Shown: positions 1-55,942 of the stretch, piece by piece
Numbering within the stretch: position 1 is the stretch's first letter
Layout: every line of letters starts with the position of its first letter
Assembly: GCF_018687715.1 (NCBI RefSeq)
Contig: NC_056767.1
Coordinates: 2,294,001-2,358,000 of the forward strand
DNA length: 64,000 nt
From: Carya illinoinensis
Lineage: Eukaryota > Streptophyta > Magnoliopsida > Fagales > Juglandaceae
Reading direction: 5' to 3'
Translations under genes and position numbers: made by a program
The notes under the pieces: generated by a model
Databases searched by the model: none
What the model saw: only the letters and a program-made list of their open reading frames with translations
Told to the model about the DNA's origin: nothing

Positions 1-934
1 GACTCGGGCTTGGACTGCCGAGGAGAATAGGCATGGGGATCTGCTTCGGACCTATTTGTATCTATCGGGTCGGGTCGACATGCTCATGATTGAGAGGACC
101 GTCCAGTATCTTCTTGGAGCTGGAATGGTAAGTCCGAGTAATTAGAACAGAAAATTATATTTATTTTTATAGATTTTATGATAAAAAGATAAAGAAAATT
201 ATATCAATATTTATAGAATTTTATATTTATTTTTATAAAATTTATGATAATAAAAAAAAAATATTTTTATCTATATAGAAATTATGATAAAAAAAATCTT
301 CTTTATAATCTCTAAATATTAGTTACGTCATGGGCATTTCTAATACCCGACGTTGTGGTTTTGATAGGATCCGGGAACAGAAAACAACCCGTACTTGGGC
401 TTCGTGTACACGTCGTTTCAAGAGCGAGCCACGTTCGTGTCGCACGGGAACACGGCCAGGCTGGCGAAGGACGGGGGCGATCCGTTGCTGGCGCGCATAT
501 GCGGCACCATCGCAGCCGACGAGAAGCGCCACGAGAATGCTTATGCCAAGATAGTCGAGAAGCTCCTCGAGGTGGATCCGACGGGGGCCATGCTCGCCGT
601 CGCCGACATGATGCGCAAGAAGATCACCATGCCGGCCCACCTGATGTTCGACGGCCGTGACCCGCGCCTTTTCGAGCACTTCTCAGCGGTCGCCCAGCGG
701 CTGGGCGTGTACACGGCTAACGACTACGCTGATATTATGGAGTTCTTGGTCGGAAGGTGGGGGTTGGAGAAGCTGGAGGGATTGACGGGCGAGGGAAGAC
801 GCGCGCAGGACTTCGTTTGCGGATTGGCGCCAAGGATTAGGAAGTTACAGGAGCGAGCGGACGAGTTGGCGAAGAAGATGGAGCCCCGTGGCGTTAAGTT
901 TAGCTGGATTTTCAATAGGGAGGTCAAATTGTAA
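1..934 (+). CDS. SAD: Acyl-ACP (stearoyl-ACP-type) desaturase, copy 1, 3' part
   Basis: Soluble plastid di-iron enzyme that inserts a delta-9 double bond into acyl chains carried on acyl carrier protein. The window opens inside an exon (1-127, reading [15 protein letters not shown]...). A 240-bp GT-AG intron (128-367) follows, then the last exon 368-934, which starts [12 protein letters not shown] and ends [10 protein letters not shown] plus TAA. Both di-iron motifs are present: EENRHG in the first exon and DEKRHE in the last. Splicing is phase 0 and there is no stop or frameshift in the visible part, so it may be functional, but the 5' end lies outside the window. The last exon differs from the complete copy at 31073-31639 by about seven residues, for example Asp for Tyr in AK(D/Y)GGD and Gly for Asp in LT(G/D)EGRR. 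It belongs to the duplicated block that ends at 3374. Confidence 0.93.
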
Positions 935-3779: not shown

Positions 3780-3913
3780 AATATGTACGGTATCATCCAT
3801 GCCCAGACTTATGATTTAATGCAAGACGACATGTAGCTTTTGTAGTAGATAAACGACCTGCAGCTGGGAGATATTTATTGTGTAATAGCCCCCCACAAGA
3901 TGGAGAATAGAGA

Positions 3914-5409
3914 TTAACTATTTCCCATCTTGGACAAATGTAATCGAAGAAGATATGAGGGCAAGCCCTTGGTAAAAATGTCAGCCAGTTGGCTGTTTGA
4001 GGCAATAAGTGCAGTGGTGATGCTTCTTTTTTGGATTTTATCCTTTATCAAATGACAATCCAACTCAATGTGTTTTGTTATTTCTTGAAAAACTGGACTA
4101 GCAGCTATATGAAGAGCTGCTTGGTTGTCACAATAAAGTAATACCGGCTGTGAATGATGAATTTGAAGATCATTGAGAAGATATTTGAGCCAAGTAGTTT
4201 CAGAACATGTGGAGGCCAAAGAGCGATACTCAGCTTCAGCTGAGGAGCGAGAAACCACAAATTGTTTCTTTGACTTCCAAGAAACAAAAGAGTCTCCAAG
4301 AAATACATAATAACCAATGACACTACAGTGTGTGTCAGGACATGAGGCATAATCTGAGTCACAATATGCTCTAAGTTGGAGTGGAGAAGAAGATGAGAGC
4401 AATATGCCTTGACCAGGAGCAGCTTTGATATATCTGAGAATCTTATGTGCTGTGGCCAAGTGTGATGTTGTTGGATGACTCATAAATTGACTTAGAAGCT
4501 GGACATCATAGCATATATCAGGCCTAGTGATTGTGAGATACAACAAGCGACTTATAAGCCGTCTATAAGTACTCAGGTATGATAGAGGAACACCATAATC
4601 TTTGCTAAGTTTGAGGTTATGCTCAAGAGGAAACTTAAGAGGCTTGCTGCCAAGTGTCCCTGAATCAGCCAAAATGTCCAAAGCATACTTTCTTTGGCAT
4701 AAGTGAATGCCATTGGAAGATCTTGCAACTTCCAAGTCAAGAAAATAGCGCAAACAACCAAGGTATTTGATCTTAAATTGAGTGTTAAGGAAGCATTTAA
4801 GGGAGGCAATGGAAGATGAACAATTTCCAACAATGATAATATCATCTACATAAACTAGAAGTATAATGAAGGAAGTTCCATCTAGTTTAGTGGAGAGACT
4901 GTAATCAGCTTTAAATTGTTGGAATCCAAAAGCAATAAGTGAGGAGGAAAATTTAGAGTACCATTGCCATTAAGCTTGTTTAAGGCCATAAAGGCTTTTG
5001 AGAAGCTTGCATACTTGGTTGGGGCCTCATTTGGTGTAACCGGGTGGTTTACGCATATAAATCTCCTCATCCAACTCTCCATGGAGAAATGCATTATTGA
5101 TGTCAAACTGAAAAGGAACCAGCCCTTGACAGTAGCAATGGAGAGTAGAATTCTCACAGTAACAAGCTTAGCTAAGGAGGAAAATGTTTCGGTATAGTCG
5201 ATACATTCTTGTTGTTGTGTAAACCCTTTTGTCACAAGTCGTGCTTTCAACCTTTCTACAGACCTATTAGCATTAAACTTGGTCTTGTAGACATACTTGC
5301 AGTCAATAGCCTCTTTCCCAAGAGGCAAATCACTGATGAGCCAAGTTTGGTTTTGTTCTAAAGCCAAGAGTTCAGCTTCCATGGCTTTACACCAACCTGG
5401 GTGTTTCAT
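3914..5409 (-). pseudogene. copia reverse transcriptase and RNase H (decayed)
   Basis: Minus-strand Pol remnant. The stretch 5409-4882 carries the RT start (KHPGWCKAMEAELLALEQNQTW, FKTKFNA-type, LVTKGFTQQ). The catalytic box YVDDIII is encoded around 4860-4830, after a frame change. From 4753 to 3914 one open frame gives 279 residues with the RT end (YFLDLEVARS) and copia RNase H landmarks: AYCDSDYASCPDTHCSVIGY, SWKSKKQFVVSRSSAEAEYR, YCDNQAALHIA, HIELDCHLIKDK and ADIFTKGL. Several frames are needed to cover RT, so it is not functional. Confidence 0.9.
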
Positions 5410-13663: not shown

Positions 13664-14138
13664 TTTCCCCCCCCCCCCCCCCATTCCCTCCCCTTTCCCC
13701 CCCCCCCCCCCCCCGATTCCCTCCCCTCCCCCTTCAGACTTTCAGTGTTTAGACAGTTTAGTGCCCACTGCCTTCACAAGTCATTTTCTTCCTCACTCCT
13801 CAGTGCCTCACCTCTCATCTGAACCGGTGCCGTGCCGTCGCCCCTCCGACCTCCGTCACTCCTCTGAAAGCCCATTCTTTGCAAAACCGAGGTGCCTCTC
13901 TCTCTCTCTTTCTCTCTCTATAATTTGTATATCTTAACTATTTTTGCATTATTTTTGTTCATTTTCGAAATAGTTGTGGATATTAGGTTTGTTTGTGTGC
14001 TGGAATCGTTGGATAGTTGTGGATTTTAGGATTGTTGTGTGCTATTTATGAAAGGCCATGGGTTTTCTTCATGAGAGATGGATGGGGGTCATGGGTTTAA
14101 GCAGATTCGCAGAAGCTTTTAACCCAGTAAGCACTGAG

Positions 14139-14480
14139 TTCGCTCGAGCTCAGTGTCGAGCGAGGGTCGAGCGGCACACTCTGCCTGAATTCGCTCGAGC
14201 TCAGTGTCGAGCGAGGGTTGAGCGGCACACTCTGCCTGAATTCGCTCGAGCTCAGTGTCGAGCGAGGGTCGAGCGGCACACTCTGCCTGAAATCGCTCGA
14301 GCGAAGTGTCGAGCGAGGGTCGAGCGGCACACTCTGCCTGAAATCGCTCGAGCTCAGTGTCGAGCGAGGGTCGAGCGGCACACTCTGCCTGAATTCGCTC
14401 GAGCTCAGTGTCGAGCGAGGGTCGAGCGGCACACTCTGCCTGAATTCGCTCGAGCGAAGTGTCGAGCGAGGGTCGAGCGA
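14139..14480 (+). repeat. 51-bp minisatellite (6.7 copies) in the transposase leader
   Basis: Units start at 14139, 14190, 14241, 14292, 14343, 14394 and 14445 (last one partial). Each begins TTCGCTCGAG or ATCGCTCGAG and ends CACACTCTGCCTGA. Because 51 is divisible by three, the array stays open in several frames on both strands and makes artificial open frames, such as a 17-residue repeat starting FARAQCRARVERHTL. Copies differ at only a few sites, such as GAGCTCAGT versus GAGCGAAGT. Confidence 0.95.
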
Positions 14481-14644
14481 TGCAACCACATTTATAGATT
14501 CCTAGGACATTTTTTCTCATTACTACTATATAAGTATATATGTATATCATATAAGTTACTTGAGTAATCTTTACATTAGTTCATGAATTTATTTTCTTTA
14601 TGTTTATCTTATTTGTTGTGCTCTACAGTTCTAGTTATTAAATA

Positions 14645-16948
14645 ATGGATATGGAAGGCACAAACACTCCTACATCCACAGGTGCATCTTGTCCTGGCAT
14701 TCCAGCCCCAGAACAACCGATTGATATTCCCATTCCAATAGTTGATGAGTCTAGCGGACCAATAGGCTCTTCAGTAGGTACTCCTAGTGCCTTTCATTCT
14801 ACCCCTCGCCCTCCACCTGGTAGTAGAAATATTAAGAATAGGTCTGAGGTATGGTCCCACTTCACAAGAGTGCCCGATTGTGATCCCGAAGAGCCTATAG
14901 CTACTTGTAATCATTGTCATAGGCAATGGAAATGCCATCCCAAAAGGCAAGGCACTTCGGCCATGAAAACACACATCCAACTTTGCCCCAAAAACCGTAA
15001 GAGTAAATTGGATAAGAGTCAAACATTCTTGGTCCCGGAAGCAAGAAGTGAAGGAGGGGAAGGGGAGAAAACCTTAGGGATGGCCAAATATAATGAGAAA
15101 AAAATACGAGCTGCCCTTGCTAGGATGGTGATAGTGGATGAGCTACCATTTAGATGTGTTGAGGGAGAAGGGTTTCGGGAATTTGTTAAAGCCCTTGATC
15201 CAAGGTTTCCTATTCCTTCTCGATTTACCGTAATGCGTGACTGTATGAGGGTATTCTTGAGAGAGAAGGATAGCTTGAAGAAAATGTTTTTGACCACCAA
15301 ACAAAGAGTATGCCTAACCACCGACACTTGGACTTCTATCCAAAATATTAATTACATGTGTGTGACCGCTCACTTTATTGATAATAATTGGAAGTTGCAT
15401 AAGCGGATCATTTCATTTGTTCGGATTAGCGACCATAAGGGGGCAACGATTGGGAGGGAGTTGGAGGAGTGTATGCTTGATTGGGGCATTGACAAAATCC
15501 TCACAATTACAGTGGATAATGCTACCTCTAACGACTCTGCTATTGATTGGTTGAGAACAAGGGAAATAGGAAGTGCGGATTGTATAGCAAATCACGAGTT
15601 TATTCACATGAGGTGTACGGCACACATCTTAAACCTTATTGTGAGTGAAGGTTTGAAAGATGTTGATGACTCAATTGTAAGGGTCCGAAATCTGATTAAG
15701 TATGTGAAGTCTTCTCCCCAAAGACTTGCCACTTTCAAGTCTTGTGTTGATAGATCAAAAGTTCAATGCTCTAGTTTTTTGACTCTTGACGTGCCTACTA
15801 GATGGAATTCGACTTTTCTTATGTTGGACGTGGCTGAGAAGTATCAAAAAGCCTTCCAACTTTTGCTTGATGAAGATCCCTACTCACGAGTTTATTTGTC
15901 TGAGGATGGACATGGGAGAAAGGGTCTAGGAGCTCCTGGGCCGGATGATTGGGAGACCATAAGAAACTTTTCGAAGTTTCTTCAAATATTTTATGGTGTT
16001 ACATTGCGCATTTCTGGTACACTATATGTCACATCAAATAATTATGTCCAGGAGCTTATTGCCATTCATAAACACTTGAATAATTTTTGTGACAATAGTA
16101 ATCGACGTTTGAGTTCAATGGCTTTCAGAATGAAGACAAAGTATAATAAATATTGGGGTGATCTTGAAAAAATAAATCGGTTGTTGTTTATTGCTGCTAT
16201 TCTTGATCCGCGGTTTAAATTGGTTACTCAAGCTTATTGGTTCAAGAAAACATTGGGTGAGGCGAAGGGTGAGGAATTTGTTGCACTCCTCAAGAGGGAT
16301 ATGGAATATTTGTATGAGGCATATGTAGAGTTTGGTGGTGGGTGCGTAACTGGTGCTAACAAAACTCAAAGCGGTGAAGCTAGTGCATCAATGGGGAGTA
16401 GTAGTACAGTTACAGACTATGATCCATTGGATTTTTTGAGGGAGTTCCATAAAGAGCATACAGCATCTTTGATGGATTGTAAGTCAGAGTTAGAGCGGTA
16501 TTTGTTGGAGAATATTGAGATTCCTACGGGGAGTTTCGATATTTTAATTTGGTGGAAAGTCAACTCTACCAAGTATCCAGTTCTTGCTCTAATGGCAAGA
16601 GATATCTTGGCCATTCCTATCACCACCGTTGCATCTGAGTCAGCATTTAGCACAGGAGGCCGTGTCCTGGATCCGTTTAGGAGCTCTTTGGCTCCTAGAA
16701 CTGTAGAAGCTCTCGTGTGCTCGCAAAATTGGTTGAAGTCTACTCCCATATGCTTGAGTCAAAATTATTCTGAAGCCATTGATGATGCAGAGAGTTATAA
16801 GCTAGACTCAGGTAATGTATTTAGAGATTTTTTTTAAGTTGTTATATGAGTTGATTTTAACATTTTGTAATACTAATTTCCTATACTTTAACATCTTAAT
16901 GCAGAATTAGCCAATTCTATGGCCAACATACTCCGTGAAGAGGATTGA
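14645..16948 (+). CDS. hAT transposase with BED zinc finger
   Basis: Predicted 736-residue nuclear DNA transposase, in two exons: 14645-16811 and 16905-16948, joined by a 93-bp GT-AG intron that replaces the exon-1 readthrough with the ending ELANSMANILREED. Without splicing the frame ends at 16837 after 730 residues. Domains: disordered Pro/Ser-rich start (1-60); BED finger (about 67-115, C88, C91, H110, C114); RNase-H-like catalytic core with D227 in LTTDTWTS and D291 in ITVDNATSND; hAT C-terminal dimerisation and catalytic region (about 615-715), with IWWKVNSTKYPVLALMARDI and the Glu in ASESAFSTGG at about 665. There is no internal stop or frameshift. It belongs to the plant Ac/DAYSLEEPER-like zinc-finger BED group. 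The intact ends and the target duplication make this the likely source protein for its own element. Confidence 0.93.
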
Positions 16949-27707: not shown

Positions 27708-28760
27708 TTAAAAAGGAACACTTCCATGATCAACTCTACCATTAGAATCCTTAAAGAAATCAGAAACATCAAGACTTGTAATATCTTCTCCATCTATAGA
27801 ATCTAAAGCATATGATGGTTCAGCAAAATTTGTTTCAAATTTCTTTGTTTTTTCTTTTATAGAAGATTGATATAAGTCAACCAAGTGCTTATCTGTACGA
27901 CAGACACGAGCCCAATGTCCAGTCATACCACATCTATGGCATCCATCTTCATCTTTCTTTAAAAATTTGTTTTGAGGACCTTTGCCCTTCTCTGAGTTGA
28001 ACCACTTCTGGTGGTACGGTGTATATCTATTATTGTCCCTTTTAGTGTGGTCACTTCTAAGACCTCCACTTCTATAGATTTTCCTACCACGTCCACGCCC
28101 TCGTTTTTTTTTGAAAGATGCATCATTCGCTTCTGGGAATGATGTAAATCTAGAACCATTCACTTCAGGGAATGATATAGAACCAGTAGGACGTGACTGG
28201 TGATTTCTTAACAAAAACTTATTATTTTGCTCAGCTAATAGAAGACAAAATATAAGTTCAGAATATTTTTTTTTTAGCTTTCACTCTCGATATTGCTGCT
28301 GCAAGAGCACATTTGAGGCATGAAAAGTAGTATATGTCTTCTCTAACAAGTCATCATCAGTGACTTTTTCACCACATAATTTCAATAGCGAGCTAATTTT
28401 AAAGAGTGCAGAGTTATACTCACTAACACTCTTGAAGTCTTGCAACCTCATGTGCATCCAATCATGACGAGCTTTTGGGATGATTACAGTTTTCTGGTGT
28501 TCATATCTCTCCCTTAAATCATTCCACAAAATAAGTGGATTTTTCACCGTTAGATATTCAGTTTTTAATTCTTCATGAAAATAGTGCCGAAGGAAAATTA
28601 TTGCCTTAGCACGGTCCTGTAAGGGCCCTTGATTTCCTTCTTTAATTGTATTTCTCAGGTTCATCGCATCCAGATGGATCTCAGCATCAAGGATCCAAGA
28701 TAAATAATTTTTTCCAAAAATGTCAAGAGCAACGAATTCTAATTTTGTAAGATTTGACAT
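27708..28760 (-). pseudogene. copia gag of element 2
   Basis: Starts MSNLTKLEFVALDIFGKNYL and continues SWILDAEIHLDAMNLRNTI, then the gag domain with LRERYEHQKTVIIPKARHDW, to ASNVLLQQQYRE at 28284. A frame break follows at about 28270. The second half (28214-27708) has a basic patch (KKKRGRGRGRK), the zinc knuckle CHRCGMTGHWARVC and the end DVSDFFKDSNGRVDHGSVPF. The protein would bind element RNA in virus-like particles. One break separates otherwise well-preserved halves. Confidence 0.88.
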
Positions 28761-28899
28761 TTTTTACATATATAAATCAGGAACATAAGTATAGAGTTTT
28801 CATTAAGTAATGTAACATTTCATATTCATTTTGGAAATTACAAAAATATATTGAAAAACTTACTTGAAGTAGAGGACTACTAGCTTCAAAATCGTCAGA

Positions 28900-29276: not shown

Positions 29277-29665
29277 AGTAATATTTATGACCTTTTTTCT
29301 ACTGATTGGTAGAATTTTTCATTTTTCTTTTTTGAACTTCTTTTTTCCTTTATCGAAATCACAAAGGAGGAAAGAAAAAGAAACGTGGTGTCGACCAATT
29401 AATAGGGTAGCTGGGACTCATTGAAGCAGTCAAAACGAGAGGCCGACAGCTCACATACAAAACACACGCATACTGAAACAATCACAGTCTGGTTTTATGA
29501 ATATTTAATGCCAAGAGGTCTGTAATTCTTATTTTTGTCAATAAGAAATGGTAGGATAGTAATTTTTATGGAGAATATAGGTCAAATATTTGGCGTCCTG
29601 TCGCATAAATAAAACTGCAGGCGGTTCTCAATTGCCAAGTCCCTCTCAACAACCAGAAGACAACC
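29277..29665 (+). promoter_or_regulatory. SAD: Upstream region of the complete desaturase gene
   Basis: 389 bp between the copia LTR and the desaturase ATG. It includes an AG-rich stretch (29363-29385) and a CACACGCATAC patch. I could not place a convincing TATA box. The copia 5' LTR ends only 390 bp upstream and is oriented away from the gene. Confidence 0.5.
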
Positions 29666-31639
29666 ATGCAGATGCAGGCCTTATACTCGTATTCCAGCTT
29701 TTGCACGGAAAACCAGGCATTGCGCCGGTCAAGTGGCTGCAATCCGACCCTCCACCGCCTCCGATCACCCACCACCGTCAGGTTCGCTATGACAGCAGCT
29801 CCGGCAGTACGACCACCTGCTCTCAAGCACCAGAAGATCACGCACTCGATGCCGCCGGAAAAGATGGAAGTGTTCAAGTCTCTGGAGAACTGGGCGTCTC
29901 AGAGCGTGCTGCCACTTCTGAAGCCCGTGGAGCAATGCTGGCAGCCCCAGAACATGGTGCCCGACCCCACATTGCCGTTCGAAGAATTTACTGATCAGGT
30001 GAGGGAGCTTCGGAAGCGGACGGCGGAGCTTCCGGACGAGTATTTCGTGGTGCTGGTGGGGGATATGATAACGGAGGACGCACTCCCCACGTACCAGACC
30101 ATGATCAACACGTGGGATGGGGTCAGGGACGAGACCGGGGCCAGCGTCAGCCCATGGGCCGTATGGACTCGGGCTTGGACTGCCGAAGAGAATAGGCATG
30201 GGGATCTGCTTAGGACCTACTTGTATCTCTCGGGTCGGGTCGACATGCTCATGATTGAGAGGACCGTCCAGTATCTTATTGGAGCTGGAATGGTAAGTCT
30301 TGAGCAATTAGAACAGAAAATTATATTTATTTTTATAGGTTTTATGATAAAAAGAAAATTATATATATTTTCTTTTTATAAAATTTATGATAAGAAAAAG
30401 AAAATTATTTTTATCTTTAAAGAATTGTTGATAAAAAAAATCTTCTTTATAGTCTCTAAATATTAATCATGTCATTGGTAAGGGTAGTAATATGTTACAC
30501 GATTGATTAATCTAATACAAATAAGATACGATAATAGGGGGTTAGAATTTAATCTTGACGGGTTCGGATCAAAATATATTGATTTATTAAGACACTATTG
30601 CTTAACAGATTGATAACGGGTCAACCCGTTATGACACGTTAAGAAAGTTAAAGTTACAATTATATCCTTCTACTTAAAAGTAAATTTGTTAGAATTTTAA
30701 TTTCAATATTTTTATTATTTGAATTGTAATTTTTGACTTATAGTTAGTTTTATAATTTTTATAGATATTGTGATTTTAAAATTTATATAAAATTATACTA
30801 AATTTAATCATGTCAAACTGATTAATTTAAGACATATTCAACCAATTTACATAAACAGTTTGAAACGGGTCGTATTATGTCGTGCTAATCTATTTCGTAA
30901 TATTTACAAATGAATCAAAATAAGTCGCGTTAATATTTAAAATTTTAACATGATAAATTTAACGGATCAGATTAAAATTAAACTATATAATATAATATAT
31001 ATTTTTATCACAACATAAACACGATTTTACATTCCAAGACATTTCTAAGACCCGACATTGTGGTTTTGATAGGATCCGGGAACAGAAAACAACCCGTACT
31101 TGGGCTTCGTGTACACGTCGTTTCAAGAGCGAGCCACGTTCGTGTCGCACGGGAACACGGCCAGGCTGGCGAAGTACGGGGGCGATCCGTTGCTGGCGCG
31201 CATATGCGGCACCATCGCAGCCGACGAGAAGCGCCACGAGAATGCTTATGTCAAGATCGTCGAGAAGCTCCTCGAGGTGGATCCGACGGGGGCCATGCTC
31301 GCCGTCGCCAACATGATGCGCAAGAAGATCACCATGCCGGCCCACCTGATGTTCGACGGCCGTGACCCGCTCCTTTTCGAGCACTTCTCAGTGGTCGCCC
31401 AGCGGCTGGGCGTGTACACGGCTAACGACTACGCTGATATTATGGAGTTCTTGGTCGGACGGTGGGGGTTGGAGAAGCTGGAGGGATTGACGGACGAGGG
31501 AAGACGCGCGCAGGACTTCGTTTGCGGACTGGCGCCAAGGATTAGGAGGTTACAGGAGCGAGCGGACGAGTTGGCGAAGAAGATGGAGCCCCGTGGCGTT
31601 AAGTTTAGCTGGATTTTCAATAGGGAGGTCAAATTGTAA
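29666..31639 (+). CDS. SAD: Acyl-ACP desaturase, complete copy, with Trp at the castor-118 position
   Basis: Predicted 397-residue plastid enzyme that uses ferredoxin and O2 to desaturate acyl-ACP. Two exons: 29666-30292 and 31073-31639, with a 780-bp phase-0 GT-AG intron. Residues 1 to about 40 are Ser/Arg-rich and fit a transit peptide. All six di-iron ligands are present: E137, E175 and H178 (EENRHG), E228 (FQERATF), E261 and H264 (DEKRHE). Numbering is castor enzyme plus 32. At the substrate-channel position equal to castor Leu118 it has Trp150 (TGG at 30113-30115), while M146, T149, P211, T213, G220 and F221 match castor. Castor L118W and the cat's-claw seed enzyme, which has Trp there, prefer 16:0-ACP, so a palmitoyl-ACP preference is inferred. 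It lies tail-to-tail with PIN6. The start is the first ATG that gives a transit-like leader. Confidence 0.96.
30478..31036. mobile_element. Intronic insertion of about 0.56 kb specific to the second desaturase
   Basis: The first copy's intron is 240 bp and this one is 780 bp. The extra block starts after GTCATTGG and ends before ACATTTCTAAGACCC. It contains a palindrome TAACGGGT-CA-ACCCGTTA at 30617-30634 and phrases such as GACGGGTTCGGATC and ACGGGTCGTATTATGTCGTG, typical of non-autonomous repeats in plants. I could not define terminal repeats. It could equally be a deletion in copy 1. Confidence 0.5.
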
Positions 31640-36800: not shown

Positions 36801-38973
36801 TGAATTAGATGAAACGACATATAATATGTCAGTGTAGATTTTTTGAGTAATATTAACTCAATAATAAAGATTTTATAATTTACTTATGTGTGTATCTTTC
36901 TTCTACTTAATGTTTTGAAGTTGTAATAATTTTGAAAAGTTTGGTTGCACGAACTTACAAACTCCTAGAAAAAGCAATGTATGATATGTTACAATCTTGT
37001 GTCCACTTTTTCTCTTTTTCTGTCCCCAATTATCTGAGCAAAGAACAAGTTTTAGAATATTTAGATGATAGAACTAAACAAACAAATAAATCCTTCCTTT
37101 CATAGCTGGGAAACTAAGCAACATGACAAAAACCAAATGTCAAAAGATGCAGATGTACGTTTGTTCCAGCCCCTACCCATTTTTGAAGAAAAATAAAAAC
37201 TTTCCTAGTGTTTTCCTTCCATTATCGACAACAACTAGTGAATTCGATTGTTAACTGAGGGATCAACCTCAGACCAGCTTGTGCTCATGTCAGATTTCTG
37301 CAGACAACATTCAGGCATTTGCAGTACCCCAATATTCTGAAAAAGCTTTCATGTCTGCTTGATATTAATTCTGACGTATATAATTATGGAAAAAAGAAGG
37401 GTCATTTCAGCGTTTTTCCCCTCCGAAACGGAGGAAACGACGATGAATCAAACAAACACAGTGGCGGACACAGACCTGCCATGTTCGGTACTGGGTACAT
37501 ACCTGTGACCATGACATCTTTGAATCCTTGTCTATCTCCTTGCGCACACAGCACGGGTGATTCCCACATCATCGTCACGCCGGAGAAAGTCGGAGAAGTC
37601 TGACGGAAAACTCTCCCGGCTACGGGGGACCTCGACCATACCGGAGTGCTCCCCGTCGTCGTCTCAAGCTCGTTGAAATTCGATGCGCGTGGAGAAGGCT
37701 GGAGAGAGTAGGCATCGGAGGAGACGTATCCAGACAACCGGGGGCTCCCGGAACGGTACCCGAGAGCGAGGTCGTTGTGCCCAAATGCGACATCGTGCGG
37801 AATTAGCTGTGCTGGAGTGTTGACTGAGAAGATTTCGGCGTTGGACAGGTTTGACGCTCTGGGAGTAATGCCTATGGAGGGGGACACGTCGGTGGCAGAG
37901 GAAGTAGACCGTCGGATGCGCACGCGTATGGTGCGGCCATTGGCGTCGAGTTCCGATTCGGTGCGTAGTGGGTCCCGGCCGTCGAGCGAGATCACATCGT
38001 TGTCGAGCTCGAATTTTGAAATGGAGGCGGCGGTGGCGCCTGGAAATTGGGTTTTGATTAGCAGGGTGGCGGCTCGGTATTCGAAGAGGAAGAGCAAGAG
38101 TGTGTACCTACGGATTGACACGAGACCTCTAATTAGTTAGCATTAAAACTCGTTTAAGAACCAAAACAAAAGAAACAGAGAAACGGCAAAACACTGACAT
38201 AAACAAACACGTGTTTGTACCAAAATAATCATATGAAATGCTAAAAAAGAAAAGACTTTGACGTGAAAATTCCAAGTTGATAAACGAATGAACCATCTCA
38301 CTTGAATTTAGAACTATAGAATAATCTTTTATATATGTGAAAGCCATTCCTTTTTTTTGTTTTTCCATCTTTTCAGCTTACTTTTACAAACAGTGCTTCA
38401 GCTAAGTAAAACTGTAGAAAGCAGTAACAAGAAAGAGACCCTTTGATTACACTTTCACAAAATTCAAGATCGTAAGGACTAATCAATGAAAATCTGGAAG
38501 AGACAGAGGGGAAGAAGAAGAAAGAAAGAAAAGAAAATATCTGATAAGTACCATATGATGCATTGAAGCACAACCACTTGCACCATGAGGCTCTGAGTGA
38601 AATCACCATACATGGCTTTGAGCAAAGGAATGCCCATGACAAGAGTGTTAGGCAAAGTGGCTACGGAGAAGAGAGTGATAAGCCAATCCAAGCCACCATT
38701 AAAAAAGATAGCCCAAACTGAGAGCAAAACAAGGACCACGACCTTAGAGAGAGTGTCAGCCAGTATGAACTTGGTGTCCATTTGGTAAGGATTATTTTGA
38801 GATATGAAGTGGAAAGACAGCACTGGAACCGCGAACACGGCCACGAACCGGTTGATCCCTGAGCACTGCTCGGGACTGAATATCTTCCACCATTTCACTG
38901 AGCTATATGCTACCAACATTGCAAAATATAGAGGAACCATTGCACACATGACCTTGTAGAAATCATTCCCACT

Positions 38974-38979
<6 letters not shown>
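33832..38979 (-). CDS. PIN6: PIN-type auxin efflux carrier, closest to PIN6
   Basis: Membrane auxin exporter of 542 residues. Seven exons, all with GT-AG introns and consistent phases: 38552-38979, 37503-38107, 35105-35312, 34942-35027, 34537-34694, 34242-34318 and 33832-33898. The first transmembrane block (residues 1 to about 160) starts [20 protein letters not shown] and includes [15 protein letters not shown]. The central hydrophilic loop (about 160-383) holds [52 protein letters not shown] and MMWES. The second membrane block begins [20 protein letters not shown], with NPNTYSS, and ends [13 protein letters not shown]. The loop sequence and its moderate length fit PIN6, an atypical PIN reported at both the plasma membrane and the ER, better than PIN1 or PIN3. 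TPRASN and SPRASN are candidate AGC or MAP kinase sites. A (GA)n run sits right before the ATG. Confidence 0.95.
34712..34941. other. PIN6 intron 4 beyond the duplication breakpoint
   Basis: From 34712 onward the sequence has no counterpart in the first block, so the duplicated segment ended inside this intron. Otherwise ordinary AT-rich intron. Confidence 0.7.
35313..37502. other. PIN6 intron 2 (2.2 kb) with a repeat insert
   Basis: Largest PIN6 intron. At 36141-36312 a poly(T) run is followed by AAATATCGGGGAAGCTGTCC and GTAAACCCCACTTCCATGCA, and another A run closes it, which looks like a short retroelement fragment. No coding sequence on either strand that I can support. Confidence 0.5.

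Positions 38980-39022
<43 letters not shown>
38980..39022. repeat. (GA)n microsatellite abutting the PIN6 start codon
   Basis: A CT run on the plus strand (38981-39021) reads as about 20 GA units on the PIN6 strand and ends two bases before ATG. It therefore lies in the 5' UTR. GA runs in this position are frequent in plant genes and bind BPC/GAGA-type factors in known cases. Its role here is inference. Confidence 0.85.
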
Positions 39023-39026
<4 letters not shown>

Positions 39027-39546
39027 TCTCTCTCTGATCTGTGCTAATGAATGGAGGATTACATGATACTAAAATGCAGAAGGAAGTGAGTGTTTATATA
39101 GGAGAGTAGTGGACGGAAATGCCCTTCAAAGGATATGTATATTCATTCACTTTTGAGATACTACTACTTCTATAGTGAGCTGAAATTACGGTTGGTAAGC
39201 TTAATGATATGTACTTTTTAGTGTGTTTATATTATTTATATATATATATATATAGATATGTGTGTATCAGTGTATGTTGTTGATAAACTTTGATCGGTAG
39301 TTGGAGTAGTAGTCATGATCATGGGCATTGCCAATTTCCCAAAGTATTAATGACCTAATGAGTGAGGCACCAAGCACAAGGTTTTCCCTTATAATTAATT
39401 AATAAGGGTTGTAATGTTTTTGATGCAGAATGGATTGATCCATCCATGTGTTAAAAGAATCAATGAAAATTAATTCATGTAATCAATCCCAATTAATTTT
39501 TCAATTTCATCTGCACATCATCATCATTCCTCACAACTCATCATTT

Positions 39547-40518: not shown

Positions 40519-41997
40519 ATGGCGGCCTCTGATGGCCCGCCGCCCATGGCAGCCCCGATCAGGTCCTTTGCAGATCTAGTTTCTACGGTGCCTCAACCTC
40601 TGCCGGTGATGGAGGTTCCTTTCCGTCAGCCAAAAGTCATTGATGGTGAGCTGGTATTCACGTTTTCAGCGGAGGAAATTGACAAACTTGCCCAGCCGTT
40701 TCGGTACTCCATTGTTTTGAAATTCCTTAGGCAAAGGCCCTCCCTAGATGCAGTGAGATCTTTCATTCACAGTCGGTGGGGGTTGTCTAGCATGCCGGTT
40801 GTCTCAGCGATGCAGCGTCCAAGACACGTTTTCGTTCGGATGGCTAACGAGTTGGATTATAATAAGGCCCTGTCCAGAGAATCATGTGAGGTTAATGGGA
40901 TCTTCTACAGGCCTTTTGCATGGACACCAGAATTCGATGAAAACTATGAACCACCGTGTGTACCGGTTTGGGTGTTTTTGCCTGGACTTCCACCGAGTTT
41001 CTACCAGCCTTCAGTGTTAAAAATGATCACAGCTCCTATTGGTAGGTTCATTAGATGTGACAATTCCACTATGTGTGCTACGCGTACAGATGGTGCTCGA
41101 GTATGCTTAGAAGTCGACTCCTCAAAGGCACCAATTACCTCCTTCTGGATCGGTAAGCCTGGGGTCCCGAGAAACAGAAGACAGGAGGTCATTTTCGAGA
41201 CTCTGCCGGCGTACTGCTCCAAGTGTAAATGTCAAGGTCATAATACTCAAACATGCCGTAAGGAAAATGACCAAAAGAAATATATGAAAGGCTCAAAGAA
41301 ATGGGTAAAGATTGATGTGAAACCTACGGATGAGAGGGTGACAGATTTAGAGAATATGGGAAATCCTGAGAAAGAGGTGCAAAAGGACGGTTTTGTGCCT
41401 CATGAAGTTGCTGTAGTGGCCGAAAATCTTCCTATGTTGAAGTCTGATTTTAATGGAAAGAAGGTACTGGAAGATGAAACTGGAAATGGGCACACGGCTA
41501 GCATGGAGATGCAGAATATTGATCAGGCCCCTCGACATGAAACAGCCCAGGTTTACGTAGGTGAACCGAGTTCTCCTAATGGACCTCAGGGTCAAGAATT
41601 TGAACATGGTGTGGAGTTGATGAGTGAAATGCGTGTGGAGAAAAGTGTTGTTTCGGTGTTGGGTCTCATAGATAAGGAAGGGAGGTCTAAAGATATTCCT
41701 TCTTTTCAAGTCACGGAACTTATGGAGGATGGGTCAAGCTTGAATGATGAGATGATGATACCGAATACTGATGGTGAGCATGTGGAACATCTTATTTCTA
41801 TAGGATGTAATGATGGGGGTAACAAGGAGTTGGCTGCGGAATCACAATCGGACCATGAAATTGAGAGAGTTAGTATGAGAGTGGATATGCAAAAAGACTA
41901 TTGTACGGACTCGGAAGGCATGACCAAAAAAGCAGGTAAGTTCCTGAAAAGAAATTCTACCCAGGCTATTACTCGTCCTAATAAGTTGAATTTATGA
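40519..41997 (+). CDS. LINE ORF1 (RNA-binding, zinc knuckle)
   Basis: 492-residue nucleic-acid-binding protein that packages element RNA. The N-terminal half matches the plant LINE DUF4283 type (GELVFTFSAEEIDKLAQPFR, YSIVLKFLRQRPSLDAVRSF, CVPVWVFLPGLPPSFYQPSV). It is followed by the zinc knuckle CSKCKCQGHNTQTC (CX2CX4HX4C, about residue 234) and an acidic low-complexity tail of about 220 residues. The ATG at 40519 is the first that gives the domain start. The stop codon overlaps the ORF2 start as ATGA (41994-41997), so ORF2 is probably made by termination-reinitiation. Confidence 0.93.
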   Translation: MAASDGPPPMAAPIRSFADLVSTVPQPLPVMEVPFRQPKVIDGELVFTFSAEEIDKLAQPFRYSIVLKFLRQRPSLDAVRSFIHSRWGLSSMPVVSAMQRPRHVFVRMANELDYNKALSRESCEVNGIFYRPFAWTPEFDENYEPPCVPVWVFLPGLPPSFYQPSVLKMITAPIGRFIRCDNSTMCATRTDGARVCLEVDSSKAPITSFWIGKPGVPRNRRQEVIFETLPAYCSKCKCQGHNTQTCRKENDQKKYMKGSKKWVKIDVKPTDERVTDLENMGNPEKEVQKDGFVPHEVAVVAENLPMLKSDFNGKKVLEDETGNGHTASMEMQNIDQAPRHETAQVYVGEPSSPNGPQGQEFEHGVELMSEMRVEKSVVSVLGLIDKEGRSKDIPSFQVTELMEDGSSLNDEMMIPNTDGEHVEHLISIGCNDGGNKELAAESQSDHEIERVSMRVDMQKDYCTDSEGMTKKAGKFLKRNSTQAITRPNKLNL

Positions 41998-44900
41998 TTA
42001 GTCCTATTCTCTTTTGGAACATACGGGGAGTTCGCTCTTCCAGGTTGAGGTTGAGAAATATTTTTAAGAAATTCAGGCCTAAGATTATTGCTTTGGCTGA
42101 GCCTTTTTTGAGGGAAGATAAAATTCACACTCTTTTGGGGAAGTATAATTGTGATAGTTTTGTCACTAATGAGAGACATAGTGGAAAAATATGGCTGTTG
42201 TGGAACTCTGATATTTCTATACAGTGGTTGAATGGGTCGAACCAATTTGTTTCGGTGAAAGTTGAGGAGAATGGGTTTGTTTTTATTCTTACTATAGTCT
42301 ATGCTAAGTGCAACCCTGTTGAAAGGAAAAACCTTTGGGAAGACTTGGTTGAGCTGAGTAATGGTAATCTTCCATGGATTCTATGCGGCGATTTCAACAT
42401 TATCAGAGAGGACTCGGAAAGACGGGGGGGTCACCCCCGCCCTTTTACGGCTATGGGGGATTTTAATTTTTGCCTCCAAAACTGCGGTGTTATGGATATG
42501 AAATCACAAGGCGCGTCGATGACTTGGTGTAATGGTCAAAGCGGCTTGGCTCGCAGTTGGGCAAGGTTAGATCGTTGCTTTCTTAATTCTATTTTTCTTA
42601 ATTGCTATCCTAATGTTTTTTCTCAGGTGTTATCTCGTTCTACCTCTGATCACTCTCCTTTAGTGATTAAGATGGGTGAAGACCCGTTCAGGTATGGGCC
42701 TAGTCCTTTTCGTTTCCAATTTATGTGGACTGACCATGCAGATTTCCTTAGCTTCGTGGAGGGGTCTTGGAATCAAGCTGGGCTTGGTTCTGGTCTTTTT
42801 AGGTTGTCCTTTAAACTTAAAAGACTTAAGGTGGCGCTTAGGGATTGGAATCAAAGTGTTTTTGGGAGGACAGATGAGATTATCAAGAATATTGAGCAGC
42901 GTATAGATCGACTGGATAATAGCCTTCAGAATTCTTATTCTAGTGAGGATGATAATGATCTTTTGGCTGCTAAATTGGATCTCTTAACTTGGAGGGGTCG
43001 GGAAAATACTCGTCTGTCTCATATGGCTAAGAAAAGATGGTTAAAGGATGGAGATAATAATTCAAAATTTTTCCATGCATATTTGAATGCAAAAAATCAA
43101 AAGAGGGTAACTGACATGTTTCTTGCAGATGGTACTCATTTAAATAACCCTCTTGAGATTCATAAGGCTGCTGTTGAGCATTTCAAGCAGTTTTTGAGTG
43201 AGAATAGCAGTTGTGAGCTTTCCAGTTTACGGGATTTGATTTCCCCAGTGATTACGGAGGATGAGAATTTGATGCTTTGTAGTCCTCCTTCAATGGGTGA
43301 TATTAAAGATGCTTTGTTTAGTATTCCTATTGATAGTAGTCCGGGCCCGGATGGTTTTGGCTCAGGGTTTTTTAGGTCCTGTTGGGAGATTGTTAAAGCA
43401 GACCTTTTGGAGGCGGTTTCTGAGTTCTTTCAACATCAGATGCTCCCTAGATATTATTCTGCGTCTTTTATTGTGTTGATTCCCAAGGTTGATTCTCCTA
43501 CGGGCTTTGATAAGTTTAGGCCTATAAGTTTGTGTTCTGTGGTTTATAAGATTTGTGCGAAGATTTTGGTGGGCCGTCTCACGAATGTGCTCCCAAAGAT
43601 TATCTCTCAGGAGCAAGGGGCCTTTATTCCTGGTCGTAGCATTTTTGAAAATATTAGTCTTACGCAGGAAATGGTCCACTCTATTAATAAAACCACTAAT
43701 GGGGGAAATGTCTTGGTTAAGCTTGATATGTCCAAGGCCTATGATCGAGTAAATTGGAGGTTTCTTATTCATGTGCTGGATTCTTTTGGGTTTTCTTCTC
43801 AGTTTTGCGCTTTGATAAACCTTTGTATTTCCTCACCTTGGTATTCTATTATGATGAATGGCACCTCTTTGGGTTTCTTTAAGGGCGAGCGTGGTCTGAG
43901 GCAAGGCGACCCACTCTCTCCTTATTTATTTGTCATTATGCAAGAGACGCTATCTCGGCTTCTTAAGCATGCTTTTCAGAATGGCAAGATTGTCGGGTTT
44001 TCTCAAGCTAGAGGTACCCCCCTTATTTCCCACCTTATGTATGCGGATGATATTGTTATTTTTGCTAATGGTGGGAAGAAGTCTATGAGAGGGTTGATGG
44101 AGGTGCTTAATCTTTATGAGACTTGGACAGGTCAGATTCTTAATAAAAATAAAAGTGCTATTTTGTTTTCTAAAAAGATATCTGATCCAAGAAAGTCTTC
44201 TATTCTTCGTATGACTGGTTTCTCAGAAGGCTCCTTTCCTTTTAATTATCTGGGTGTTCCTATTGTGATGGGTCGTCTGAAGGTTTGTGATTTTGGGGAC
44301 CTGATTGGTAAATTTAATAAGAAAGTTGCAGGGTGGAAAATGAAACTGCTCTCTACTGGGGGTCGTGTTATTCTTTTACGTCATGTTTTATCGAGCATGG
44401 CAACTCATCTTATGGCTGTTCTTCATGTTCCCCATGGTGTTTACGTGGCGCTTAACAGGATTATGAGTTCCTTTTTTTGGGGTGATTTTGAAGGGAAAGG
44501 TAAGAGGAAGTGGGTGGCTTGGAAACATATTTGTCAGCCTACAGAGGAAGGCGGTTTGGGTATTCGGGACTTTGAGGAGGTTCAGAGGGCCTTACATATG
44601 AAATTTGCTTGGAATCTTCTTCAGGGGCATTCTTTATGGGCAGAGTTCTTTAGAGGCAAGTATGTGCAAGGGAGTCATCTATCCCTTTTGAGCCCTACTA
44701 AAGGAACTAGGTTTTGGAAAGCTGTTGTGCATTGCATCCCGGAGGTTTTAAATAATTCTAAGTGGCTTGTGAAAGAAGGAAATGTTTCTTTCTGGTATAA
44801 TAATTGGGCGAATGGGGGCCCTATTGGTGATCATTTGCCGGTTCTTGAAAGCCCTTCGCTTCGAGTCAAGGAGTGTAGGATTGAGAATGGTTGGGATATT

Positions 44901-46124
44901 TCTCTCTTGGAAAGATTAGTGGGTCCACAAAAAGCCGAAGATTTGTTTCAGTTTTTGGCTACTAGGAAGGATGGTCAGGATATCCTTATTTGGACGAGGG
45001 ATAATAATGGGAATTTTAATACTAGAAGTGCTTGGGACTGTATCCGTGTGAGATCCCCATCGTTACCTTGGGCAAATTGGATTTGGCATACTCATATCCC
45101 CAAAAAAATTTCTATTATGATGTGGAAGGCGTACCACAATTGTTTGAGTGTGGATGAGAAGATCATGAATATTGGCATCCCTTTTGTTTCTAAATGTAAT
45201 TGTTGTGCCAGGGGTCACATGGAGGATTTAAACCACGTACTCTGCACTGGTGAATTTGCCAGATGTATTTGGAGGTTGGCGGCGACCCATTTAGGTGTCC
45301 ATATGGGTGTTTTCCATACTTGGAAGGAGTAAATTAATTTTTGGTTTCGTCGTGCGGGTAAGTCTTCTCAGTTAAGGTCTATCTTTGGTATTCTACCATC
45401 CATTGTTTCTTGGCGACTTTGGGATAGACGTTGCAAAGCTCGGGTTGAAGAAAAAGTGGACTCAGTTCAATCAGTTTGGCATGTTATCAAATTGTGGATT
45501 CGAAGGATTATGTCGTTATTTATGAAAGTCTCTAGGATTTCTGCCCATGATGAGGCTATTCTGAAAAGGTTGGAGATCCCAGTTGTATATCCTAAGCCTA
45601 GGCATACTCGTGTGATTAGATGGAAGAGGCCACCACAAGATTGGATGAAACTTAACTCGGATGGTAGTAGTTTAGGGAATCCAGGGCCGGCTGGTGCTGG
45701 GGGGGTTATTCGTGACAGCCTTGGTAGGTTGCATACTGCTTACTCGGTTTTCTTGGGTCAGGGGTCTAATAATTTTGCTGAGTTGCGTAGTTTGTTGGAA
45801 GGGGTTAGGAGGTGCCATCAGCTGGGCTTTCGTCGGGTTGAGATTGAGGTTGATTCCCAATTGCTGGTTCGCTGGTGTACTAAGGGTGAATGTAATATTT
45901 GGTACCTAGAAGATTTTTGGGAGGAATTGTGGGGTCTCTTGGGCGGTATGGAGTTTCGCATGCAACATGTTTTTCGTGAAGGTAATGTAGTCACCGATTT
46001 TCTAGCCAAAAAGGGAGCTGGGGGTTTAAATATGGACTGGTCTGTTAATGATTCCTTACCCGATCAGCTCCGTGGTCTGCTTCGTATGGACAGAATTGGT
46101 CTCCCCTACTTGCGCATCTCGTAG
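41994..46124 (+). pseudogene. LINE ORF2: endonuclease, reverse transcriptase, RNase H (one stop)
   Basis: One continuous frame of 1376 sense codons, broken only by TAA at 45330-45332 (codon 1113). Order of parts: AP-type endonuclease (1 to about 225; WNIRG, LAEPF, CGDFNII, SDHSP); reverse transcriptase (about 440-720; SSPGPDGFGSGFFRSCW, KLDMSKAYDRVNW, GLRQGDPLSPYLF, LMYADDIVIF with Y683); zf-RVT region (about 1010-1100; IWHTHIPKKISIMMWKAYHN, CNCCARGHMEDLNHVLC); then, after the stop, RNase H (about 1215-1350; KLNSDGSSLGNPGPAGAGGV, NFAELRSLLEGVRR, VEIEVDSQLLV). Endonuclease and RT motifs look intact, so the truncated 1112-residue protein may still act; RNase H would be lost without readthrough. 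Confidence 0.93.
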
Positions 46125-53800: not shown

Positions 53801-55758
53801 TTTTTACCTCCGTAAGTAAATCAAGTCCTTCCCCGTTACAAAACAACTTCACAGTGGATAACATAAGAACCAGTAGAGACAGCTGACATACGTATTACAC
53901 TCAGCAAGTCGAACGGAAAGAAACAAGTTCAAGTATTCCATTTACACACACAAACAAGGAGGTACAAAGAAGGGGGAGGGTCAGTGCAGGAAAAAAAAAA
54001 CAAAAAGAAAGGAAAAAGATCAAACTTGCACCCAACACGTCTCAGCCCAAACACATAAAAATAACAGCATATTTGGGAACAATGAGTTTTTCTTTTTCTA
54101 ATTTCAAGATTTTCTTAGTCTTGATCCAAAAATATCTCAATCATCAAAGCAAGGACCCATTAAAACCCATCTTCAAATGTTCTCAAAGGTTTCATAAATT
54201 TTTTAGAAAATCTTTAATTATTGGCACCAAGTGACGCAGGCGTCCAATAAAAAGTCCTTACCAATCCGGGGGGAGCACAGGCCTTTAGCAAGGAGTTTCC
54301 TGCGAGTGCTAATTGAGTAATTCGAGAAGAACTCTACCAACCCAATGGCCCCTAGAAATCATTTGCACCTAAGAGGGTTCAAGAAAATCTTAAGTCCAAA
54401 CATTTCCTTAACTCTAGTCAGTATCAAGGATAAAGCCATTTCAAACATTGCAAACTAATGGAGGACCTCTCAAACTATGGCAATATATGGGCATAAGAAT
54501 GGGTTTGCCAATCACACTCCAGCAAACTCTAGCAACAAGATATCCAGAAACATCTTACATCTCATTGAAAGCCCTACATCTCCAACCGTGGTGATGGAAG
54601 ACGTGCATTTTTTCCAACAGATTAATGGGAAAAAAAATTCAACAAGAATCAACCAGGATCTTCGCTATGAGGAGAGCCTAGTCACCAAGAGTCAGCTGTC
54701 TTAAATAAGAAAGTTTATGTTACTTTTCAAAGCTTTTGAGAGAGCTCTACACGCATTCAAATACAGGATTATGAAAATAAGGTGCTGGGAATTTCATGCC
54801 CGTGACTTTATTTAAGGGTAAACTTCTTCATTATAATTTCCGGAGTTTTAATTTAGGGCTTTAAATAAGTGTTAGAAAAGTTAATGATGGCCAGGAATTA
54901 AGGTGCAACAAGGCTTAATCCATATTCTGATAGGAAGAGTCAAAAGAATCGAATAAAAACCAGGAATTCTTCGTTAAATACGAATTCCTCTTGAACATCA
55001 AGGTGTTCTACAATCAAACAAACAATATGCATCTTGATATGAACAGAATGTATGCATGCCTGTAAAATGATATGTGTTCTTTACATTTACATGATTCAAA
55101 TCCAATATAAGCAAAGGCTATTTACGTTTTAGAACTAAAACTAAGCCCACTAAAGAAACGTTTGAAACCATAATAGCGGTCAATTACGCAATTCATTCAC
55201 GACAACCTCCACAAACAAAGTCACAAAATTTGGTACATACTAACAACGGACAGTCAGCGCAATCAATTCACTTGTTGCCCGAGAACGGGAAAAAATCAAT
55301 CCCTTCACTCCTGAATTTTATTATCCCTAATTGGATAAAAAATTCCCATCTCATCTCGCAGCGGATTTGAATAACCCAGCTTCACTTATCCTATCCAAAG
55401 AAAAGAACAGAAAGCAGGAAAGAACCTTACCATCCTCGCCATCTTCCTCCTCCTCTTCGTCGTCGGTATCGACCTGCGCCTCTAGATCAAAGAACTCAGA
55501 ACCGGACCGCCTCTTCGGCCGGGGCCTACGCCCTCCACCTCCGCCGCCGCCACCACCGTAGTCATCGTCGTCATCTTCGTCCTCTTCCTCGTCGTCTTCC
55601 TCCGCAACGTCGTCTATGAACTCAGATCTCCGCCTCTTCCGGCTCGAGACGCCCCTGTCTTCTTCCTCCTCTTCCTCTTCCTCGTCCTCATCGTATGCCT
55701 GATATTCTTCCTCCTCAGGCTCGAGGTCGTCGTCGTCTTCGTCTCCTCTACGCGGCAT
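47823..55758 (-). CDS. SPT5: Transcription elongation factor SPT5
   Basis: Nuclear elongation factor that pairs with SPT4 to clamp RNA polymerase II. 22 exons give 1039 residues: 55431-55758, 53398-53636, 53144-53290, 52853-53011, 52691-52774, 52423-52493, 51961-52318, 51716-51871, 51506-51603, 51329-51377, 51096-51248, 50871-51014, 50585-50678, 50315-50473, 50180-50228, 50008-50102, 49756-49834, 49498-49552, 49283-49397, 49032-49175, 48308-48405, 47823-48068. All phases agree. Domains: acidic N-terminus (1-120, Asp/Glu runs, GRRPRPKRRSG); NGN (about 180-275, PKLWMVKCAIGRE); KOW repeats near 280, 430, 475, 603, 708 and 990; a C-terminal repeat region (about 765-925; TPMHPSRTPLHPYMTPM, TPGGQPLTP, TPGGQPMTP). 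The length is close to Arabidopsis SPT5-2. Intron 14 uses a GC donor (GCAAGT). No damage seen. Confidence 0.96.
52580..52690. mobile_element. Short retroelement-like fragment in SPT5 intron 5
   Basis: A T run followed by GGTAAGTAAAATTTTTTTTC, ATAGGCGAAGCCTGTGTACA and CAGGAAGTTTACAAAAGAAA. Sequence of this type recurs across plant genomes as a short retroelement fragment. It lies directly next to the exon 5 donor without touching it. Confidence 0.5.
53637..55430. other. SPT5 intron 1 (1.8 kb)
   Basis: The only large intron of the gene, directly after the acidic exon. Mixed sequence, no supported ORF or repeat pair. Long first introns are common in plant housekeeping genes and can hold expression-enhancing sequence. 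Confidence 0.6.
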
Positions 55759-55942
55759 CGCTCTCTCTACCTGTCTTTCGTTTTTCTGTGTGCTCTGAAA
55801 GTGGAACCCTAGAAGACGATAGCCTGTTAATAAGGGGTGCGGGACGATGATGAATTGATGATAATAACATATTGTTATAATAATAATAATATACTTTTAA
55901 ATTTTGTCAAAATTATATTATTTTTTATATTTTATTTAAGAA

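What the first reader, a model, noticed from the sequence alone, without database searches (positions are those of the whole stretch)
29666..31639. Desaturase with a natural Leu118-to-Trp change predicts 16:0-ACP preference
Aligned from memory to the castor delta-9 18:0-ACP desaturase with a constant offset of 32 residues (all six iron ligands fall in place), residue 150 is Trp (TGG at 30113-30115) where castor has Leu118. The other known specificity positions (114, 117, 179, 181, 188, 189) match castor. A bulky residue at 118 shortens the acyl channel: the cat's-claw seed 16:0-ACP desaturase carries Trp there, and castor L118W shifts preference to 16:0. The gene may therefore feed palmitoleate and vaccenate rather than oleate.
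Basis: partly seen in the sequence, partly recalled or inferred. Interest (0 to 1): 0.75.

Follow-up and report, generated by a model that had tools for sequence, protein, structure and literature searches.

The report
Duplicated desaturase with one pocket change
One of two neighbouring copies of a plant fat-desaturating enzyme gene has gained, by a single DNA letter, the same pocket change that is found in a cat's-claw vine enzyme that acts on a shorter fat; whether this enzyme behaves that way has not been measured.

Summary
The gene (two exons, 397 aa) is a soluble plant acyl-ACP desaturase of the SAD6/AAD6 type. Residue 150 is Trp (TGG, 30113-30115), opposite castor Leu118; all six iron ligands and pocket residues 114, 117, 179, 181, 188 and 189 match castor. 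Position 115 is Ile, as in most SAD6-type proteins retrieved (110 of 128).

Three points are added. (1) A full-length twin about 30 kb upstream, partly inside the window, keeps Leu118 (TTG): the Trp is one derived base change in one of two tandem copies. (2) Trp118 is rare: 2 of 247 retrieved homologues, one of them a record that differs from this protein at one residue, which makes a base-call error unlikely. (3) The Trp copy's branch is longer than its twin's, but relative-rate tests are mixed.

The pocket equals that of the cat's-claw 16:0-ACP desaturase apart from Ile115. A shift towards 16:0-ACP is therefore the best reading, but it is inferred; pocket residues misplaced two cotton enzymes. 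Relaxed selection on a redundant copy is the main rival. The host looks like pecan (inference).

The parts
29666..30292 (+). exon 1 of the Trp118 desaturase gene (copy B), residues 1-209, with a transit-peptide-like N-terminus
   Evidence: spliced translation; Pfam PF03405 from residue 65; plastid targeting not tested
30113..30115 (+). codon 150, TGG (Trp), equivalent to castor Leu118; TTG in the twin
30293..31072 (+). intron, GT..AG, phase 0, 780 bp (240 bp in the twin)
30479..31039 (.). about 560 bp in the intron that the twin lacks; copies of a dispersed repeat
   Evidence: alignment of the two introns; similar stretches at 39 or more other places of the host genome, (43 matches: own place, 39 others, 3 short second pieces; 40 of 1481 candidates scored)
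31073..31639 (+). exon 2 of the Trp118 desaturase gene, residues 210-397 and stop
29471..29665 (+). 5' flank that aligns with the twin's; at about 29471 a 104-bp block of the twin's flank (its -295 to -192) is absent
   Evidence: blastn of the two flanks; which copy changed is unknown
1..127 (+). end of exon 1 of the Leu118 twin (copy A); the rest lies left of the window, gene C16:2293501-2294934
128..367 (+). intron of the twin, 240 bp
368..934 (+). exon 2 of the Leu118 twin

Best explanation
The gene encodes a soluble diiron delta-9 acyl-ACP desaturase of the SAD6/AAD6 type, presumably plastidial. It is one of two tandem copies, and a single base change (TTG to TGG) turned Leu118, at the closed end of the acyl channel, into Trp in this copy. 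The bulky side chain should shorten the channel, so that 16:0-ACP fits with C9-C10 at the iron centre while 18:0-ACP fits less well; the product would be 16:1-delta9 and, after elongation, 18:1-delta11. The twin with Leu118 would keep the ordinary 18:0-ACP activity. Shown here: gene structure, residue identity, the twin's Leu, rarity of the Trp. Inferred: the substrate shift, plastid import, expression and any effect on the plant's lipids.
For: W150 opposite castor L118 with the remaining pocket intact. [quoted passage not shown] Review passages: bulky hydrophobic residues at the channel bottom shorten it and favour 16:0-ACP (PMC5790276; PMC8002970), and one substitution can be enough (PMC4982047). 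Leu in the twin and in 235 of 247 homologues makes Trp derived. Reading frame, splice sites and all six iron ligands intact; dN/dS between the copies 0.0198/0.0613, below 1. Trp118 is also in P0001, a record with one other residue changed. The 80-fold shift of castor L118W is recalled (Cahoon 1998); the paper was not held.
Against: No activity or expression data. Pocket comparison misplaced GhA-SAD5 and GhA-SAD7 of cotton, which preferred 18:0. Arabidopsis AAD6, of the same type, is listed as a stearoyl-ACP enzyme (PMC8002970 passage), and the effect of Trp in this background is untested. The Trp copy also changed at two other conserved sites, castor 257 and 284, besides 118, which may mean loosened constraint; exon 2 alone gives dN 0.0162 against dS 0.0239. 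The structure model was unusable (mean pLDDT 53.0), so channel depth was not modelled. Palmitoleate is only a trace in pecan kernel oil, if the host is pecan.
Confidence: 0.58

Rival explanations
1. Relaxed selection on a redundant duplicate: the twin does the work, and Trp118 is one of several loosely tolerated or damaging changes in a copy on its way to loss. Any change of specificity is a by-product without a role.
For: Branch to the Trp copy 0.042 against 0.0055 to the twin. Changes at three sites that are 90% or more conserved in a 40-row alignment (castor 118, 257, 284) against one in the twin (173). Exon 2 dN 0.0162, dS 0.0239. Repeat insertion in the intron.
Against: Open frame, splice sites and all iron ligands kept; overall dN/dS about 0.3. 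The relative-rate excess is below p 0.05 with only two of seven outgroups (counts 9:3, 7:3, 8:2, 9:2, 10:2, 11:1, 7:3).
Confidence: 0.3
2. An active 18:0-ACP (or mixed) desaturase like its twin: the SAD6 background, with Ile115 and other differences, absorbs the Trp, and the copy is kept for dosage or for expression in other tissues.
For: Pocket residues do not decide specificity alone in cotton. In the retrieved SAD6-type set Phe occurs at 118 in 5 of 128 and other residues in 5 more, with no activity known to me for any of them. The 5' flanks of the two copies differ by a 104-bp block. Chinese hickory SAD6 raised 18:1 in walnut embryos (PMC10523321 section 19), though its residue 118 is unknown to me.
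Against: Muc-PAD with nearly the same pocket is a 16:0-ACP enzyme; channel-length reasoning. The Chinese hickory protein also raised 16:1 in yeast and docked stearic acid weakly.
Confidence: 0.11
3. A base-call or assembly error at codon 118.
For: A single base separates the two states, and the copies are 95.5% identical in protein.
Against: P0001, which differs at residue 309, also has Trp118 and the other copy-B residues; its longest contig is 27.9 Mb whereas this chromosome is 30.6 Mb.
Confidence: 0.01

Closest known systems
Cat's-claw (Doxantha/Macfadyena unguis-cati) delta-9 16:0-ACP desaturase, Muc-PAD
   Same: Trp at castor position 118; 114 Met, 117 Thr, 179 Pro, 181 Thr, 188 Gly, 189 Phe
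   Different: Muc-PAD has Leu at 115, here Ile. That Muc-PAD is a FAB2-type sequence is recalled; it was not retrieved. Its activity was measured, this one's was not.
Castor delta-9 18:0-ACP desaturase (PDB 1afr, 1oq4, 4v0j)
   Same: All six iron ligands and six of the eight listed pocket residues
   Different: L118W and L115I
SAD6/AAD6-type desaturases of dicots (Morella rubra P0003, Ricinus P0006 and others)
   Same: Best named hits are mostly labelled desaturase 6; the copies join the Morella pair in the tree (support 89/76, below the starred level); Ile115 as in 110 of 128
   Different: Trp118, where 116 of 128 have Leu
The twin gene C16:2293501-2294934 (copy A)
   Same: Tandem, one intron at the same place, 397 aa, 95.5% identical
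   Different: Leu118; 17 other residue differences; short intron; a 104-bp block in the 5' flank
Arabidopsis AAD2/AAD3 16:0-ACP desaturases
   Same: Proposed short channel by changes at its bottom (passages)
   Different: They have Thr, Ser and Phe at castor 114, 179 and 181 and Leu at 118 (Table 1); none of the three is here

Membership tests
Plant soluble acyl-ACP desaturases (Pfam PF03405) | Match to the family profile over its cut-off | tested here: met
   505 bits against a cut-off of 22.7, residues 65-391 on profile 1-325 of 325
Plant soluble acyl-ACP desaturases (Pfam PF03405) | Six diiron ligands (castor E105, E143, H146, E196, E229, H232) | tested here: met
   All six present
Plant soluble acyl-ACP desaturases (Pfam PF03405) | Plastid transit peptide | not tested
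   About 60 N-terminal residues precede the conserved part; no targeting predictor was run
Plant soluble acyl-ACP desaturases (Pfam PF03405) | Fold by structure prediction | tested here: inconclusive
   Model of P0001 with mean pLDDT 53.0, not used
SAD6/AAD6 type | Closest relatives are SAD6-type proteins | tested here: met
   Named best hits mostly 'desaturase 6'; tree of 36 rows, chosen from 120 retrieved plus the two copies. No Arabidopsis AAD6 row was identified by name.
SAD6/AAD6 type | Induction by low oxygen, as reported for Arabidopsis SAD6 (PMC12994171 passage) | not testable with these tools
   No expression data
Delta-9 16:0-ACP desaturase, cat's-claw kind | Trp at castor position 118 with an otherwise castor-like pocket | tested here: met
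   Seven of eight residues as in Muc-PAD; Ile115 instead of Leu
Delta-9 16:0-ACP desaturase, cat's-claw kind | Preference for 16:0-ACP in an assay | not testable with these tools
   No assay possible
Delta-9 16:0-ACP desaturase, AAD2/AAD3 kind | Thr, Ser, Phe at castor positions 114, 179, 181 | tested here: not met
   Met, Pro, Thr here (against Table 1)

The most novel reading that the evidence does not exclude
A tandem duplicate of the SAD6 desaturase gained a new substrate, 16:0-ACP, by a single base change at codon 118. This would repeat independently the step seen in cat's-claw vine, in another branch of the family, with the unchanged sister 30 kb away as a built-in control and with a 5' flank that has also diverged.
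Probability: 0.4. Interest if true: 0.6.

Novelty: new variant of a known kind. Interest (0 to 1): 0.42.

Why it matters
If the prediction holds, this is an independent natural use of the castor L118W change, in the SAD6 branch, with its Leu118 sister beside it: a clean pair for asking whether one residue is enough to move a desaturase from 18:0 to 16:0 in nature. It would also mark a 16:0-ACP desaturase gene in what is probably a nut tree, of use for omega-7 oils. If it fails, the pair shows that residue 118 does not carry its effect into the SAD6 background, which limits a rule used to predict specificity from sequence.

Tried and rejected
Base-call or assembly error: judged very unlikely because of P0001. 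Trp118 as a normal feature of the SAD6 type: rejected, 2 of 128 in that set. Mis-alignment: rejected, no gap near the site. AAD2/AAD3 pocket class: not met.

Led nowhere: the structure prediction of P0001 gave no usable model (mean pLDDT 53.0), so no fold search and no channel model were made. The castor L118W paper could not be read; the one library paper holding 'L118W' and 'desaturase' is by its title about sunflower thioesterases (listing only). A pecan miRNA paper held nothing on these genes in the passage search, and a pecan seed transcriptome paper counts two SAD unigenes without saying which (passages). The Ophrys genome paper gave no residue data (passages).

Species: pecan is inferred from assembly size (674,387,116 bases in 17 contigs, against 674.27 Mb in 16 scaffolds for 'Pawnee', PMC8257795 Table 1 as a passage) and from two DES6 genes being reported in pecan against one in Chinese hickory (PMC6497033 passage). 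No call names the organism. Date of the duplication: not estimated; dS is 0.061 and no rate was tested. Low-oxygen element: the twin's extra 104-bp block holds AAACCACTGGC at -269, one base off the HRPE consensus as I recall it; no paper confirmed the consensus, so nothing is built on it. One search found the twin's exon borders first and printed a meaningless long translation; one search replaced it.

Full report
What is there. On the + strand, exon 1 (29666-30292) and exon 2 (31073-31639) join across a GT..AG intron into a 397-residue protein. Pfam gives one family, FA_desaturase_2, PF03405, 505 bits. [quoted passage not shown] Residue 150, TGG at 30113-30115, is Trp opposite castor Leu118. 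The six iron ligands and pocket residues 114, 117, 179, 181, 188 and 189 equal castor's; 115 is Ile instead of Leu.

How unusual it is. Three protein searches (each listed its best 120 of about 8000) gave 247 different proteins, all of which were counted. At castor position 118 the 128 proteins from the two SAD6-type queries read L 116, F 5, W 2, T 2, A 1, I 1, H 1; the 119 further proteins from the castor query all read L. The two Trp rows are P0001, which differs from the window protein only at residue 309, and a Bauhinia paralogue, P0103, whose pocket differs from castor at four of the eight positions besides 118 (114 Q, 117 S, 179 I, 181 N). In the host genome a family search gave 19 exon-wise matches, which I read as nine genes and a fragment; position 118 is Trp in this gene, Leu in four and Thr in four. 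One of the Thr genes has a stop inside exon 2 (L024).

The twin. The window opens inside a second copy. Its full gene (L020:3002-3628 and 3869-4435, that is C16:2293501-2294934; exon 2 at window 368-934) is an intact 397-aa protein with TTG, Leu, at the same codon. The two copies differ in 33 codons, 15 silent and 18 not; dN 0.0198, dS 0.0613; exon 2 alone 0.0162 and 0.0239. Since Morella (P0003, P0005) and nearly all other retrieved relatives have Leu, Trp is the derived state and needs one base change. In a tree of 36 rows the two copies and P0001 join at 100/100, the window copy and P0001 at 100/99, and the branch to these two is 0.042 against 0.0055 to the twin. Relative-rate counts (window-unique to twin-unique) with seven outgroups were 9:3, 7:3, 8:2, 9:2, 10:2, 11:1 and 7:3, with p below 0.05 in two of seven; with the nearest outgroup, Morella, p is 0.146 (P0003) and 0.34 (P0005). 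The window copy is changed at castor positions 118, 257 and 284, which are 90% or more conserved in a 40-row alignment; the twin at 173. This fits adaptation or loosened constraint. The intron of the window copy holds about 560 bp that the twin lacks and that belong to a dispersed repeat (43 matches: its own place, 39 others and 3 short second pieces, with 40 of 1481 candidates scored). A 104-bp block of the twin's 5' flank is absent here.

What it probably does. Published comparisons list eight residues at the channel bottom; cat's-claw Muc-PAD departs from castor only at 118, with Trp (PMC6554319, section 14 read). The window protein shows that set with Ile115, a residue also listed for three cotton enzymes of the omega-9 group of that table. 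Reviews say that bulky residues there shorten the channel and favour 16:0-ACP, and that one change can suffice (PMC5790276, PMC8002970, PMC4982047; passages). The 80-fold figure for castor L118W is recalled and was not read. Against this, two cotton enzymes whose pockets placed them with 16:0 enzymes preferred 18:0 (PMC6554319 passage), and Arabidopsis AAD6 is listed as a stearoyl-ACP enzyme. A Chinese hickory SAD6 is reported to raise 16:1 in yeast and 18:1 in walnut embryos and to dock stearic acid weakly (PMC10523321, section 19 read); that protein is a 289-residue model found in the cytoplasm, and its residue 118 is unknown to me, so this is only a hint. I put the chance of a real shift towards 16:0-ACP somewhat above one half.

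Host. Assembly size and the number of large pieces fit the pecan 'Pawnee' reference (PMC8257795 passages), and pecan has been reported to hold two DES6 genes where Chinese hickory has one (PMC6497033 passage), which could be this pair. That is inference. In my searches of the held library (listings) and in the passages and sections read I saw no mention of Trp at this position in Carya; I did not search all these texts for it, and subscription papers are not in that library.

Verdict. A confirmed, rare, derived change in one of two tandem copies, with a well-grounded but untested functional prediction. It is a new variant within a known enzyme family, of moderate interest because the sister gene makes a direct test easy.

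Noticed in passing
14642-16837 (+): A 731-aa open frame between the twins with hAT transposase domains (zf-BED, hAT-like RNase-H, Dimer_Tnp_hAT). The spacer of the tandem pair is rich in mobile elements.
   Followed up: partly
41985-45332 (+): LINE-type open frame of 1115 aa with endonuclease, reverse transcriptase and zf-RVT domains.
   Followed up: partly
3914-4969 (-) and 28281-28763 (-): Copia-type pieces: RVT_2 at 3917-4969; a gag-like match just below the cut-off at 28284-28763 (26.1 against 27), upstream of the Trp118 gene.
   Followed up: partly
37402-39093 (-): Two exon-like frames matching Mem_trans (auxin efflux carrier family), the weaker one only at the cut-off.
   Followed up: no
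55351-55896 (-): Acidic open frame with a weak Spt5_N match, 27.1 bits over a cut-off of 24.2.
   Followed up: no
14052-14567 (+): Open frame made of repeats of about 20 residues (FARAQCRARVERHTLPE...), seen by eye; no repeat finder was run.
   Followed up: no
L021-L024 and L026 (C1:46.97-47.03 Mb and 47.24 Mb): A second cluster of four diverged desaturase genes with pocket residues such as T-I-G-T-I-S-F-T (castor 114, 115, 117, 118, 179, 181, 188, 189), unlike castor, cat's-claw or AAD2/AAD3; one (L024) has a stop inside exon 2, and L026 is a fragment. They are further candidates for unusual specificity.
   Followed up: partly
L020:2707-2810: 104-bp block in the 5' flank of the Leu118 twin (-295 to -192) that the Trp118 copy lacks; the two promoters may differ in their response.
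   Followed up: partly
P0103 and P0121 (Bauhinia variegata): Two SAD6-type proteins with Trp and Phe at position 118 and several other pocket changes, another duplicated pair with altered pockets.
   Followed up: no
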